Below are positions 32,437-37,967 of a DNA stretch of 38,272 nt, one piece after another; positions within the stretch are counted from its first letter, which is position 1; every line of letters begins with the position of its first letter. The notes beneath the pieces were generated by a model, which made no database searches, was not told the DNA's origin, and saw nothing but the letters and a program-made list of their open reading frames with translations. This DNA comes from a virus, in IMG/VR virus record IMGVR_UViG_3300048922_000478, positions 1 to 38,272 of that record; one strand, written 5' to 3'. The position numbers and the translations under genes are program-made.

Positions 32437-32894
32437 TGCTCTCTCTTTTCGACGTGATCGGCCATGCGGGCACGCTGGTTTCCATTCTCGCCGTGGCGGC
32501 GGCTGTGGCGGCTCTGGTCTATGTGCCAAGCCCTCTCAAGCATTATGCGGTCGCGGCCTGCCTCTGCGCCGCGCTCGCCAGCCAGATCTATGCCGAAGGC
32601 TACCATAACGCTGACGCTCAATGGCAAGCCCGTTACGATCGGCAGATCGCCGCGATCAATGACGAAAACGAAAAAGCCGTGATCGCCGCCGAACAGAAGG
32701 CGCAGGCCGAAGCCGCCGCCAATGCCGCCAATCTGAAAGCCCAGCTTGACGATCTCGCCCGGAAGAAGGTGGCGAGCGACGCCGGTCTCGCCGCCGCGCA
32801 AGCCCTGATCGACGCCGCGCCGCAGGACACCAAGCCCGACGGTCCCGACGCGCCGGCGCATTCCGTCATTCTCGACGCCATCCGGGGGAAATGA
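32436..32894 (+). CDS. Rz-like inner-membrane spanin (probable)
   Basis: A 152-residue protein from ATG 32436, sharing TGATG with the previous stop. Residues 10-55 hold hydrophobic helices (AGTLVSILAVAAAVAALVYV, AVAACLCAALASQIYAEG). The rest is a charged coiled coil (AAINDENEKAVIAAEQKAQA, AANLKAQLDDLARKKV). An N-terminal anchor and long periplasmic coil, directly followed by an overlapping lipoprotein gene, is the i-spanin/o-spanin pattern. The pair fuses inner and outer membranes in the last step of lysis. It has more hydrophobic N-terminal length than classic Rz. Confidence 0.62.
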   Translation: MLSLFDVIGHAGTLVSILAVAAAVAALVYVPSPLKHYAVAACLCAALASQIYAEGYHNADAQWQARYDRQIAAINDENEKAVIAAEQKAQAEAAANAANLKAQLDDLARKKVASDAGLAAAQALIDAAPQDTKPDGPDAPAHSVILDAIRGK

Positions 32895-33166
32895 TGCGCG
32901 CTTTTCTCCTTCTCGCCGCGCTGGCCCTAACCGGTTGCGCCAGCTCGCCCGCCGTTCTCACGGCGCCGCCGCAAGTCGCGCGCCCGCTGTTGCGAGATTC
33001 CATTCCGCAAAGCCTGCTGGCCTGCCTTGACGAGCCGAGCGGCGCCAAGGTCGCCACCAATCGCCAGGCGGCAACCTACGTCCTCGATCTCAAGCGCGCG
33101 GGCCGCGACTGCCGGCAGAAACTGCGTTCGGTCGGCGCCCTGATCGAAGGCGAGGGCGGCCAATGA
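32891..33166 (+). CDS. Rz1-like outer-membrane lipoprotein (o-spanin, probable)
   Basis: A 91-residue protein with a lipoprotein signal peptide MMRAFLLLAALALTGC and lipobox L-T-G-C (C16). The mature part begins ASSPAVLTAPPQVARPLL, Pro-rich as in many Rz1 proteins, then LLACLDEPSGAKV. It overlaps the end of the Rz-like gene by 4 bp. In alphaproteobacterial phages this pair commonly follows the endolysin. The lipoprotein and pairing are seen. The spanin role is inferred. Confidence 0.65.
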   Translation: MMRAFLLLAALALTGCASSPAVLTAPPQVARPLLRDSIPQSLLACLDEPSGAKVATNRQAATYVLDLKRAGRDCRQKLRSVGALIEGEGGQ

Positions 33167-33393: not shown

Positions 33394-33512
33394 GCTCGCG
33401 CCGGCGCCAATGCGTCCCGGCTTTTCTGCATTTGGAAGAGCGGCCCGATCCGGTCGCCATAAGGATGGATGATGGCGGACGGCGGCGGTTCGAATTTGCA
33501 GATTGCCCTTAG
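33390..33512 (+). CDS. Possible small basic protein (40 aa)
   Basis: ATG 33390 overlaps the preceding stop (ATGA) and opens 40 codons (MSSRRRQCVPAFLHLEERPD, then GGRRRFEFADCP). It overlaps the next gene by 41 bases in another frame. Coupling is in favour, the overlap and lack of motifs against. Confidence 0.28.
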   Translation: MSSRRRQCVPAFLHLEERPDPVAIRMDDGGRRRFEFADCP

Positions 33513-33891
33513 CGTCGCCGGCGCATTAGGCCTTGGGGGCATTCTCGGGAAGATCATTGAGACTTATTACAGCAAGCGGAAAACATCGGCCGAAACTGAC
33601 AAGACGGTAGCCGAGACCGATCGCACCGAAGCCGAAACGGCCAAACTGCGCGCCGAAACAGACGCGCTGATCCGCGCTGCGGTTGCCGCCCAGGTGCAAT
33701 TCATTCTCGACGACCATACCAAGCAACGGCAGATGGATCGTCAGACGATCGAGGAAATGGGTCGCCGCATCGAGACGCTAGAGAGGGAACTAAAAAAAGT
33801 CGAAGCCGAACTGAGGCATGAGCGCAGACGTCAGGCAAAGGCCTGCATCGGTTGCGAAAGGCTGCTTCCGTTCGGCGTGACCGAAGAATAA
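33472..33891 (+). CDS. Membrane-anchored coiled-coil protein (139 aa)
   Basis: A 139-residue protein from ATG 33472 (AAGG 7 bases upstream; ATG 33469 also in frame). Residues 8-28 form a hydrophobic anchor (IALSVAGALGLGGILGKIIE), then a long heptad coiled coil rich in Glu/Lys (ETDKTVAETDRTEAETAKLR, IEEMGRRIETLERELKKVEA), and a final pair CIGCERLL that may bind a metal. Similar small proteins end late operons and may be virion-associated or envelope-acting. No function can be assigned from the sequence. Confidence 0.55.
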   Translation: MADGGGSNLQIALSVAGALGLGGILGKIIETYYSKRKTSAETDKTVAETDRTEAETAKLRAETDALIRAAVAAQVQFILDDHTKQRQMDRQTIEEMGRRIETLERELKKVEAELRHERRRQAKACIGCERLLPFGVTEE

Positions 33892-34045
33892 TTTAGCGCT
33901 TCGTCCCTCCAGAATGCTCACGCGAAGCAAATGGCGGGGCTCCGCGAAGAACTGGAAGAGACGAGGCAGACGCGCGGGATCGGAGTAGGAATTTTAATTT
34001 CAGGCCTTGGCCGACGCGCGAAAACAGGGCCGGCGTCTAAAGCTG

Positions 34046-34834
34046 TTATTTTGCGTCAGGACAGCTCTGAGTTTTGGCATACCATCTCGGGCGCTTGCCT
34101 TTTTCAAGAATGATCACGCTTGGTACGCCGCCAATATTGTCGGCCTGATGAGAATCTATTACCTCTTTAACAACAAACGCTACCCTAGAGGCAAGCGCAT
34201 CAGCTACATTAATATACTTACGCAACGCATTCGTTCTATATGCGTCGCCAATAACGATTTTATGTATATCTATTTTATTTTGAGGTGTGAAAAATATATT
34301 TAAGTCATTTTTTGTCTCTAAACGATAGAATTTATATTTATTAGTATCATTATCAAATCCGATATACGCTGCAGAAAATTCGGGTTTATCGTTGTCAAAG
34401 CCTCCAAAAATTCCTACGGTTTGCCTTCCGGGAATAGGGGAATTTCCTTCAACCAGCAATCTTTCTACTTGGTTGCCGAATAGCTGCGCTGCGTCTTTTA
34501 TACTATTGCCATCCTCAATCAATTTCTTTTCAATGTTTATGATGCTTATAGAAGATGGTGCTGGCTCGACGAAATAATTAATATATCCCACGGCGGAAAC
34601 AACAGTATGATCATTAACAACAGTTAATTTGCAGACATCATCATCCGTGCTGCCATCATCATGTGTTTCGCGGCTGTCTGCCCCCATAACAAAAACATCG
34701 CCGCTAGAAATTGCAACAATATAAGTAGCATTAGCTATTCCGTTATTAAATAAAAAGCACAGCATAACAATGCTGCTAGCGGCGTAATGTTTAAAAGAAA
34801 CAATACGGCAGAAATAGTTAATGATATTCAGCAT
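34046..34834 (-). CDS. Secreted proteasome-beta-like Ntn hydrolase (AT-rich accessory gene)
   Basis: A 262-residue protein on the minus strand; start supported by GAAGG 7 bases before the ATG. Residues 1-36 are a signal peptide (hydrophobic IVMLCFLF, cleavage site A-N-A). The next residue is Thr37. Numbered from it: T1, A16-D17-S18-R19, K33 and G47, exactly the positions of Thr1, Asp17, Arg19, Lys33 and Gly47 in proteasome beta subunits. It opens TYIVAISSGDVFVMGADSRE and near the end has ADNIGGVPSVIILEKG, as in Anbu/HslV-like proteins. Mature size (226) also fits. Signal peptidase could generate the nucleophile. Substrate unknown. The gene is AT-rich and codon use differs sharply from its neighbours, indicating transfer. 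Confidence 0.72.
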   Translation of the reverse strand: MLNIINYFCRIVSFKHYAASSIVMLCFLFNNGIANATYIVAISSGDVFVMGADSRETHDDGSTDDDVCKLTVVNDHTVVSAVGYINYFVEPAPSSISIINIEKKLIEDGNSIKDAAQLFGNQVERLLVEGNSPIPGRQTVGIFGGFDNDKPEFSAAYIGFDNDTNKYKFYRLETKNDLNIFFTPQNKIDIHKIVIGDAYRTNALRKYINVADALASRVAFVVKEVIDSHQADNIGGVPSVIILEKGKRPRWYAKTQSCPDAK

Positions 34835-35116
34835 ATTAATACCTTCACTATGTTATATTTATTAAAATAAAACTAATTGCTATGCATTCACTGTCGCGCG
34901 GGCATCGAACTGACTACATCGATTCGAAAATCGCAAGGGCAGCTATTCACCGTATTCTAGGCGCACGAACATTTGCTCGCAATCGCTGACGTAGCGTTTG
35001 CTCCCTCGCTAGGTCTTTTCGCCAGATTTGCTGGCAGATGACCGATTTTGACGATTTCGGGCGTTAGCCCGTCCAGAGGCATCGCGGGCTGCAAGGCCTG
35101 TGCTGCAGCCCTCCTT

Positions 35117-35203
35117 GGGCGTTTCCTCCCTTGACTTGGCCCTGGTTCTGCTTCGGCAGGGCTGGGGCCTTTTTTTAAGGGCGTCAGTCTCCGGAAACGG
35201 GGG
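35117..35203. repeat. Direct repeat copy 1 (87 bp) carrying a terminator-like hairpin
   Basis: This stretch matches 36161-36246 at roughly 85 percent identity (13 differences counted by eye, one of them a one-base gap). The copies flank the D12 methyltransferase gene. The core is a hairpin with a GC-TTCG-GC loop end and a T-tract. Confidence 0.7.
35138..35176 (+). terminator. Terminator-like hairpin in repeat copy 1
   Basis: GGCCCTGG (35138-35145) pairs with CTGGGGCC (35162-35169) using two G-U pairs, with an inner CTGC-TTCG-GCAG hairpin, followed by seven T. It is a good intrinsic terminator in shape but no plus-strand gene is evident just upstream. Confidence 0.6.
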
Positions 35204-35320: not shown

Positions 35321-36151
35321 ATGCAATCAGAAATGGATCTGGGCGACAGCCAATCGCGGCTGCGCGTCGTCACGCCGGCGCGCCCAGCGGCGGGCTATAT
35401 AGGAGGAAAGAAGCAACTTGCTCAGCGCCTGTCGCGCCTGATCGACGCGACGCCCCATGTTCTGTATGGCGAACCGTTCGTCGGCATGGGCGGCGTGTTC
35501 CTGCGCCGCGAGCGCGCGCCGGAGGTTGAGGTCATTAATGACCGCTCGCGCGACGTCGCCAATTTCTTCCGGATCCTGCAGCGCCATTACGAGCCGTTCT
35601 TCGATCTGCTCAAATGGCGGCTGACCAGCCGGGCCGAATTCGAGCGATTGCTGGCGCAGGATCCTGCCACGCTGACCGATCTGGAGCGCGCCGCCCGATT
35701 CCTCTATCTGCAGCGGCTCGCCTTTGGCGGGAAAGTCGCCGGGCGGAATTTCGGCTATTCGCTCACGGGTCCGGCGCGTTTCGACACGACGAAGCTTGGG
35801 GTTCTCCTCGAAGCGATCCACGATCGCCTCGCCGGCGTGACGATCGAATGCCTCGACTGGCGCGATTTTTTCACCAGATGGGATCGGCCGGGCGCGCTGT
35901 TTTTCTGCGATCCGCCATATTTCGGGACGGAGGATTATTACGGCCGCGATCTGTTTTCGCCGGCGGACCATGCCGCCATGGCGGCGGCGCTCGGCAAAAT
36001 CCTTGGGCGCTTCATCCTAACGATCAACGATTTGCCCGAGACCCGCGCAATTTACGCGGCGTTCCGGATCGAAAGCGTCGATCTGACCTATCAGGTGGGC
36101 GGAGCCGACGAGGCTAAGGCCGTCAGCGAAATCATCGTCTCGGGGCCATGA
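35321..36151 (+). CDS. D12-class DNA adenine N6-methyltransferase (Dam-like)
   Basis: A 276-residue protein. Motifs in order: AAGYIGGKKQLAQRLSRLI near residues 23-40 (the AdoMet-side F/Y-x-G-G-K motif), GEPFVGMGGVF around 50-60, VINDRSRDVANFFRIL, FLYLQRLAFGGKVAGRNFGY, and catalytic FFCDPPYF with D197-P-P-Y200, then TINDLPETRAIY. This is the alpha-group order of Dam/DpnM enzymes. It probably methylates adenine in phage DNA (classically GATC, not verifiable here). ATG 35321 has a weak RBS; ATG 35333 is an alternative. The gene is flanked by an 86-bp direct repeat and followed by a fragment of a second copy. Confidence 0.85.
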   Translation: MQSEMDLGDSQSRLRVVTPARPAAGYIGGKKQLAQRLSRLIDATPHVLYGEPFVGMGGVFLRRERAPEVEVINDRSRDVANFFRILQRHYEPFFDLLKWRLTSRAEFERLLAQDPATLTDLERAARFLYLQRLAFGGKVAGRNFGYSLTGPARFDTTKLGVLLEAIHDRLAGVTIECLDWRDFFTRWDRPGALFFCDPPYFGTEDYYGRDLFSPADHAAMAAALGKILGRFILTINDLPETRAIYAAFRIESVDLTYQVGGADEAKAVSEIIVSGP

Positions 36152-36160
36152 TCGGGCCTC

Positions 36161-36246
36161 GGGCGTCTCCATCTTTGACTTGGCCCCGGTTCTGCTTCGG
36201 CTAGGCCGGGGCCTTTTTTAAGGGCGCCAGTCCCCAAAAACGGGGG
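36161..36246. repeat. Direct repeat copy 2 (86 bp)
   Basis: Second copy of the sequence at 35117-35203, on the downstream side of the methyltransferase gene. It keeps the hairpin, T-tract and the tail AAGGGCG-CAGTC-CC through ACGGGGG, and then runs straight into the methyltransferase fragment. Confidence 0.7.
36182..36219 (+). terminator. Intrinsic terminator after the D12 methyltransferase
   Basis: GGCCCCGG (36182-36189) and CCGGGGCC (36206-36213) form a perfect 8-bp stem, loop about 16 bases, followed by six T. It lies 30 bases past the stop codon of the methyltransferase gene and probably ends its transcript. Confidence 0.75.
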
Positions 36247-36295
36247 TAAGAAACAGCTCGCGCAGCGTCTGTCCCGCCTGATCGACGCGACGGCG
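36242..36295 (+). pseudogene. Fragment of a second D12 methyltransferase gene
   Basis: The plus frame encodes GGKKQLAQRLSRLIDAT, identical to 17 residues of the intact methyltransferase (35402-35452). At DNA level the two segments differ at eight synonymous codons and no non-synonymous one. The fragment has no start and its reading frame loses similarity at about 36295, so it is a remnant of a related gene rather than a fresh duplication. Confidence 0.65.
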
Positions 36296-37158: not shown

Positions 37159-37809
37159 TTATCCATCCTGTCGAGCTCCGCGAGCCACGACCTGCAGCTT
37201 CCCATTCGCAAGCGGCCTTTGAAGCTCCATGGCGATCGGCGTCGGCGCGTTGAGCCACGCGTCGATTTCGCTCTCCTCCGTCAAAATCACAGGCATGGCC
37301 TTCGGATGGATCGGCGCGACCTCGGCGTTCGCTTCGGTGGTCAGGAACGCGAAAATATCGCAGGTGACCTCGCCTTCCTTGGCTTTCCGAATGGACGTCC
37401 AGTTCGTCCAGATTCCGGCGAAGCAGGCGAGGGGACGCTCCTCGCCAAGGGCGAACCAGACCGGAACTTTTTTGCCGTCGGATCCTGTCTCATATTCCGA
37501 AAAGGATGTGAACGGCACGATGCAGCGATTTGCGGGCCCGAGCCAGCGCCGCCAATGCGGCGATGACGTGTTGCGCACGTTCGTCACGCCGGGATCGGTG
37601 GCGCGGCCCTTCAGGGCGAACGCCGGCGACGGCATGCCCCATCTGGCGGACGTGAGTTCCCGCGCGCCTTCGGTCAATCGGACAATCGGCGCGGGATAGT
37701 CCGGGAATATCCCGGGCATCGGAGGCAAATTGCCTGCCAGATCCTTGCTGACCCGGAAGAGGGCGCGCATCGCGTCTTGGGTCTTTGTCAGGGAGTAGAG
37801 ATTGCACAT
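37159..37809 (-). CDS. SOS response-associated peptidase / abasic-site shield protein (YedK/HMCES family)
   Basis: A 216-residue protein on the minus strand. It starts MCNLYSLTKT, so Cys2 becomes the N-terminal nucleophile. The other active-site residues match the family: N77 in TNVRNTSS, E105 in FTSFSEYE, H168 in PIHPKAMPVIL. RWGMPSP and RCIVPF are also typical. The family forms a thiazolidine crosslink with abasic sites in single-stranded DNA and protects them. In phages it may guard replicating DNA. The minus-strand location and position beside methyltransferase and zinc-ribbon genes suggest an accessory DNA-protection set. Confidence 0.88.
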   Translation of the reverse strand: MCNLYSLTKTQDAMRALFRVSKDLAGNLPPMPGIFPDYPAPIVRLTEGARELTSARWGMPSPAFALKGRATDPGVTNVRNTSSPHWRRWLGPANRCIVPFTSFSEYETGSDGKKVPVWFALGEERPLACFAGIWTNWTSIRKAKEGEVTCDIFAFLTTEANAEVAPIHPKAMPVILTEESEIDAWLNAPTPIAMELQRPLANGKLQVVARGARQDG

Positions 37810-37818
37810 GACTGAAAT

Positions 37819-37935
37819 ATGCGCCACGCAGGCGGCGCGATAAAGGTGGATTTTCCGCTCTGGCTTAGCTCCGACAGCGTCGGGAACGCAAAGGAGATCC
37901 TGGCGGTGAACGGCTGTGACGCTGACGTATTCTGA
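37819..37935 (+). CDS. Possible small protein divergent from the YedK-like gene (38 aa)
   Basis: A 38-codon frame starting at ATG 37819, directly divergent from the YedK-like start, encodes IKVDFPLWLSSDSVGNAKEI then LAVNGCDADVF, which looks protein-like. The terminator-like hairpin at 37968-38004 follows on the same strand, which would suit a small transcript. No RBS is obvious, so support is limited. Confidence 0.32.
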   Translation: MRHAGGAIKVDFPLWLSSDSVGNAKEILAVNGCDADVF

Positions 37936-37967
37936 TCGGCGTTGGATGCGCTCTGCGCGCATAGGCT

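What the first reader, a model, noticed from the sequence alone, without database searches (positions are those of the whole stretch)
34046..34834. Exported proteasome-like Ntn hydrolase carried as a phage accessory gene
Seen: a signal peptide with an A-N-A cleavage site is followed immediately by Thr, and counting from that Thr gives D17, S18, R19, K33 and G47. The C-terminal end has a GG-P-x-(V/I)-(I) strand ending. Known: these are the catalytic and structural positions of proteasome beta/HslV/Anbu Ntn hydrolases, which normally expose Thr1 by propeptide cleavage or Met removal in the cytosol. Inference: here signal peptidase would expose Thr1, giving a periplasmic or secreted proteasome-type hydrolase. 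I know of no described phage system of this kind. It could be a lysis, superinfection-exclusion or anti-competitor enzyme.
Basis: partly seen in the sequence, partly recalled or inferred. Interest (0 to 1): 0.9.

Follow-up and report, generated by a model that had tools for sequence, protein, structure and literature searches.

The report
Phage gene for exported proteasome-like enzyme
A bacterial virus carries a foreign-looking gene for a proteasome-type enzyme with an export signal in front of its catalytic threonine; viral proteasome relatives are already known, but a version sent out of the cell has not been described in the literature I could search.

Summary
The ORF lies on the minus strand (34834 to 34046, 262 aa). 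A Sec-type signal ends in ANA, Thr follows, and T1, D17, S18, R19, K33 and G47 sit exactly where stated. Pfam Proteasome (PF00227) matches weakly (E=0.0013), with T1 in register. A profile of this protein and one relative retrieves 26 PDB chains at E<=10, all catalytic proteasome beta subunits, nearly all Thr1 on Thr1.

The gene is a phage moron: 38.5% GC against about 63%, antisense to the late genes, in a variable slot between lysis genes and a Dam methylase.

A motif scan of IMG/VR found a second exported relative in an unrelated phage (P0003), sharing T1/D17/K33/G47, DDxCK and a C-terminal W-x4-Q-x-C-P tail.

Phage proteasome homologues (PPH, AAH) are published, so "phage proteasome" is not new; no exported branch is described in that paper. 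Both AlphaFold attempts failed (pLDDT 34-37), so the fold beyond about residue 60, catalysis, exact cleavage and role are unproven. That signal peptidase itself exposes Thr1 is plausible here but not conserved in the relative. New variant of a known kind.

The parts
34046..34834 (-). Gene for the exported proteasome-like Ntn hydrolase, 262 aa
   Evidence: Open frame with ATG; Pfam Proteasome E=0.0013 in register with the Thr; GC 38.5%, GC3 34% against 65-88% in other phage genes
34727..34834 (-). Signal peptide, residues 1-36, hydrophobic core AASSIVMLCFLF, ends ...NNGIANA
   Evidence: best hydrophobic window at residues 18-29; two -3/-1 sites, after 34 and after 36
34586..34726 (-). Catalytic N-terminal block T1-G47 of the mature protein (T1, D17, S18, R19, C32, K33, G47)
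34049..34150 (-). C-terminal strand and tail: IGGVPSVIIL...W-x4-Q-S-C-P, shared with P0003
   Evidence: weak on its own (C-terminal shuffle test 9 of 500)
33446..35112 (.). Variable accessory slot: about 1.7 kb here against about 0.7 kb of unrelated DNA with a 78-aa ORF in sister phage G004; flanks conserved on both sides
32891..33166 (+). Rz-like spanin gene, near left neighbour (lysis end of the late genes)
   Evidence: PHROG 456 E=7e-8
35321..36151 (+). Dam-type adenine methyltransferase, right neighbour; 96% identical in sister phage G004

Best explanation
A phage moron encoding an exported member of the proteasome-like Ntn-hydrolase family. Proposed working: the host Sec pathway exports the precursor; signal peptidase I cuts at ANA|T (or two residues earlier, with trimming), leaving Thr1 as the N-terminus. 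Thr1 is nucleophile and base, with D17, K33 and the G47 oxyanion hole, as in proteasome beta and HslV. The two cysteines C32 and C222 may form a disulfide in the oxidising compartment. The most likely biological role is lysogenic conversion: it cuts or amide-modifies an envelope or secreted protein, for example a phage receptor, while the prophage is resident. Shown: the gene, motif positions, homology over about the first 60 mature residues, foreign composition, variable site, and a second phage-borne exported relative. Inferred: export, cleavage position, full fold, catalysis, disulfide. The role is a guess only (about 0.3); the confidence below is for 'exported proteasome-like Ntn hydrolase carried as a moron'.
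For: Pfam PF00227 E=0.0013, residues 34-83 on profile 2-52; the same family hits the relative P0003 at its own Thr. The first 57 mature residues alone hit only a proteasome beta-6 and an HslV chain at E<=10, in register (E about 1 each, not significant alone). The two-sequence exported profile hits 26 PDB chains at E<=10, all proteasome beta; adding a chromosomal relative gives E=3e-4 and also hits BPH. The exported profile finds a single protein among 381 alphaproteobacterial genomes, E=3.9e-6, and that protein is a clear Pfam Proteasome member (6.7e-10). hhalign against HslV E=9e-4, though probability only 23%. P0001 and P0003: E=6e-9; shuffle z=15 over the first 60 residues. P0003 lies on a contig with terminase and head genes. 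Moron evidence.
Against: AlphaFold2 gave no usable model (pLDDT 37 and 34) and Foldseek on those models found nothing relevant. The PF00227 score is below the curated cut-off. Beyond residue 60 similarity to P0003 is weak (17 of 500 shuffles as good). The family evidence rests on two exported sequences. The site after residue 34 would leave Asn-Ala before Thr1. No expression or activity data.
Confidence: 0.75

Rival explanations
1. Proteasome-family fold with export signal, but not a protease: a catalytically different enzyme (an amidase or a ligase like archaeal connectase) or a binding protein.
For: Connectase shows that family members can be specific ligases, and the 2021 survey warns that 'proteasome-like' implies ancestry only (PMC8665760). 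Only the active-site part is clearly conserved between P0001 and P0003.
Against: The full active-site set T1/D17/K33/G47 is kept in two divergent proteins, which argues against a dead enzyme but does not tell protease from ligase or amidase.
Confidence: 0.35
2. The hydrophobic segment is an uncleaved signal anchor, so the enzyme sits on the membrane and Thr1 is freed by self-cleavage or not at all.
For: In P0003 the segment follows a 54-residue N-terminal stretch and five residues (QVNIG) separate the likely cleavage site from Thr1. P0001 has a rather long n-region too.
Against: P0001 has a short 12-residue core and a good ANA c-region directly at Thr1.
Confidence: 0.2
3. Lysis-associated or superinfection-exclusion protein: it degrades envelope proteins at lysis or blocks entry of other phages.
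For: Position next to spanin-like genes; exported.
Against: Opposite strand to the late genes; different GC; the sister phage has an unrelated ORF there, so it is probably dispensable for lysis. No match to known lysis, exclusion or defence families.
Confidence: 0.25
4. Chance resemblance: a secreted protein of another fold with a coincidental Thr and motif.
For: No confident fold; single-sequence database scores are marginal.
Against: Independent profile hits land on proteasome beta, mostly Thr1 on Thr1; a second exported protein keeps the same positions; 0 of 100 shuffles.
Confidence: 0.06

Closest known systems
PPH and AAH (phage-borne proteasome homologues; Fuchs, Alva, Lupas 2021, PMC8665760)
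   Same: Proteasome-like family, carried by tailed phages, Thr1/Asp17/Lys33/Gly47
   Different: No export signal is described for them, and the paper says only proteasome beta and HslV have N-terminal propeptides. PPH is about 140 residues; this mature protein is 226.
HslV (ClpQ)
   Same: Thr1 Ntn motif block; hhalign E=9e-4 over 42 columns
   Different: Cytosolic, partnered with HslU; no HslU-like ATPase seen beside this gene; no signal peptide; no cysteine next to K33 in the aligned sequences
20S proteasome beta subunit
   Same: All 26 PDB chains found by the exported profile are of this kind; GG-x-x-x-V C-terminal strand; P0003 has a Gly|Thr junction
   Different: Exported, foreign phage gene, no alpha subunit, no ring evidence
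Chromosomal alphaproteobacterial relative L047 (G327), 261 aa from its MTSLVAI start
   Same: MTSLVAI...GADSS: Thr1 after Met, D17; the single convincing genome hit
   Different: No signal peptide, neither of the shared cysteines, four-residue longer loop before the Lys
P0003, contig IMGVR_UViG_3300033977_000098 (second phage)
   Same: Hydrophobic export segment, T1/D17/K33/G47, ADSR-x-TH-x-DG, DDxCK, W-x4-Q-x-C-P tail
   Different: 341 aa, long N-terminal extension, QVNIG before Thr1, only 25% identical in the mature part

Membership tests
Proteasome-like family (Pfam PF00227, sensu Fuchs 2021) | Catalytic Thr/Ser1, Asp17, Lys33 and oxyanion-hole Gly47 in register | tested here: met
   Direct count; shared by P0001, P0003 and L047
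Proteasome-like family (Pfam PF00227, sensu Fuchs 2021) | Sequence match to the family profile | tested here: met
   E=0.0013 and 0.0055 for P0003, both below the curated cut-off; supported
Proteasome-like family (Pfam PF00227, sensu Fuchs 2021) | Two beta sheets sandwiched by helices (Ntn fold) | tested here: inconclusive
   AlphaFold2 pLDDT 37 and 34
Proteasome-like family (Pfam PF00227, sensu Fuchs 2021) | Free N-terminal Thr after processing | not testable with these tools
   Needs N-terminal sequencing; sequence allows cleavage after residue 36 or 34
PPH / AAH phage proteasome homologues | Sequence cluster membership (BLAST P 1e-10 in the published map) | not tested
   Published sequences not held here; no convincing tblastn match to any annotated phage or plasmid (one phage at E=2 only)
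PPH / AAH phage proteasome homologues | No N-terminal extension before Thr1 | tested here: not met
   36-residue signal-like segment precedes Thr
HslV | Co-encoded HslU ATPase, cytosolic Met-Thr or short propeptide | tested here: not met
   Neighbours are spanin-like genes and a Dam methylase; signal-like segment present
Sec / signal peptidase I substrate | n-, h- and c-region with A-x-A | tested here: met
   by simple rule only; SignalP not available

The most novel reading that the evidence does not exclude
There is an unreported exported branch of the proteasome family, spread by phages, recognisable by a signal sequence before Thr1, a DDxCK motif and a C-terminal Q-x-C-P cysteine that may lock the fold by a disulfide outside the cytosol. 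In the window phage the active site is switched on by signal peptidase itself.
Probability: 0.5. Interest if true: 0.8.

Novelty: new variant of a known kind. Interest (0 to 1): 0.62.

Why it matters
Characterised proteasome relatives work in the cytosol, behind rings or specificity gates. A phage-borne version sent across the membrane would show that the catalytic unit can act without ATPases and outside the cytosol, and it would tie protein export to activation of an N-terminal nucleophile. It gives a small, testable enzyme for asking whether family members work as single subunits and what phages use them for.

Tried and rejected
AlphaFold2 on the mature protein alone and with two relatives gave no usable model, so the Foldseek results are disregarded. 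No homologue by tblastn in phages or plasmids, none by exact peptides in IMG/VR or GTDB contigs, and only L047 as a real relative in some 1,150 sampled genomes; of the other weak hits L046 lay in no proteasome-like frame and L048 showed none either. The exported profile found nothing in 113 Myxococcota genomes. A PF00227 survey of 299 Pseudomonadota listed only strong hits, which where read were HslV, and was not informative for exported members. PADLOC gave nothing convincing. Two scripts drafted altered copies of the protein as a loose search query; they were dropped unused. Considered and rejected: assembly chimera, because both flanks are conserved in a sister phage and the insert is internal; lipoprotein, because there is no lipobox (VMLC does not fit).

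Full report
OBSERVATION. The interval holds one long frame on the minus strand, 34834 to 34046, 262 aa. A DNA pattern for these positions matches once in the window and never in 100 shuffles; the slightly stricter version matches five stretches in all of IMG/VR, three of them chance hits in frames with stops and two of them proteasome-like proteins.

FAMILY. Pfam Proteasome matches residues 34-83 at E=0.0013, below its curated cut-off. Within the 38-kb record the same model scores E=1.6e-5. The first 57 mature residues hit just two PDB sequences at E<=10, a proteasome beta-6 chain and an HslV chain, both in register, though at E about 1. The profile of this protein with its exported relative hits 26 PDB sequences at E<=10; every one is a catalytic proteasome beta subunit and nearly all align Thr1 on Thr1 (best E=0.14). 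With a chromosomal relative added the best E is 3e-4 and BPH appears too, but that relative is itself a clear family member. The exported profile, run over 381 alphaproteobacterial genomes, found one protein (E=3.9e-6), and that one is an unmistakable Pfam Proteasome member (6.7e-10). hhalign against an HslV alignment gave E=9e-4 but probability 23%. I take membership in the proteasome-like family as well supported at the sequence level for the first 50-60 residues. The remainder has a GG-x-x-x-V strand near its end as in proteasome beta, but no test of fold succeeded.

SECOND EXPORTED PROTEIN. The motif scan found P0003 (L054, 341 aa) on a 74.6-kb contig with a terminase large subunit and head genes, so it is a separate phage. 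It has its own hydrophobic segment before the Thr, the run ADSR-x-TH-x-DG, DDxCK, G47 and a C-terminal W-x4-Q-x-C-P tail. The two are 39% identical over the first 57 mature residues, E=6e-9 by BLAST, shuffle z=15 there but only 2.4 beyond residue 60. The window's mature protein has exactly two cysteines, C32 and C222, and both align with cysteines of P0003. The cytosolic relative L047 has Lys, not Cys, next to K33. A disulfide outside the cytosol is an inference from this.

EXPORT AND ACTIVATION. The signal has a basic n-region, a 12-residue core and two acceptable cleavage sites near its end, after 34 and after 36. If the second is used, signal peptidase directly exposes Thr1. In P0003 the likely cut leaves QVNIG before Thr-Thr, which resembles self-processing of proteasome beta at Gly|Thr. 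Direct exposure by signal peptidase is therefore likely in this protein but not a conserved family trait.

MORON. The gene has 38.5% GC and GC3 34%, against 57-67% and 65-88% in nine other window genes (window profile). It is antisense to the late genes. In sister phage G004 the left flank is conserved up to about 33445 and the right flank from about 35113 through a 96% identical Dam gene, while the middle is unrelated and holds a 78-aa ORF. Searches of nine related viral records found no copy. The capsid gene's relatives lie mainly in Alphaproteobacteria, the best in a Telmatospirillum MAG and in Azospirillum agricola, so the host is probably an alphaproteobacterium; by composition the gene probably came from elsewhere.

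KNOWN. Fuchs, Alva and Lupas (PMC8665760) described 22 new proteasome homologues, of which PPH and AAH occur in phages; they state that propeptides occur only in proteasome beta and HslV, and the terms secret-, periplasm-, export- and extracellular do not occur in the main text, while 'signal' occurs once, in a journal name. Four further literature searches found no exported member. The library holds open papers only, so this is not proof of absence.

FUNCTION. The best working model is a Sec-exported threonine hydrolase acting on envelope or extracellular proteins, most likely for the benefit of the resident prophage. Export, catalysis and role are inference. Whether it is a protease, amidase or ligase cannot be decided from sequence.

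VERDICT.

Noticed in passing
35113-35203 and 36157-36246; 35402-35452 and 36242-36292: Direct repeats flank the Dam methylase: a terminator-like hairpin copy and a second copy of the start of the Dam gene (84% identical), as if the gene had been duplicated and partly lost.
   Followed up: partly
37159-37962 (-): SRAP-domain (HMCES/YedK-like) protein, Pfam E=7.5e-27, PHROG 1599, carried by the phage near its end.
   Followed up: no
L052:5072-5764 (-): Another viral contig has a cytosolic proteasome-like gene (MAIKSGTVLV..AADRR) between a dUTPase-like gene and a ClpP-like gene with a lipoprotein-type signal (neighbours named by eye).
   Followed up: partly
L047:976-1758 (-): An alphaproteobacterial chromosome (G327) encodes a cytosolic proteasome-like protein of 261 aa with Thr after Met and GADSS, next to an EamA-type transporter (transporter named by eye).
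   Followed up: partly
L011:1197-1433 (+): Sister phage has a 78-aa ORF (CxxC motif) at the same accessory slot, in the same orientation as the proteasome-like gene.
   Followed up: no
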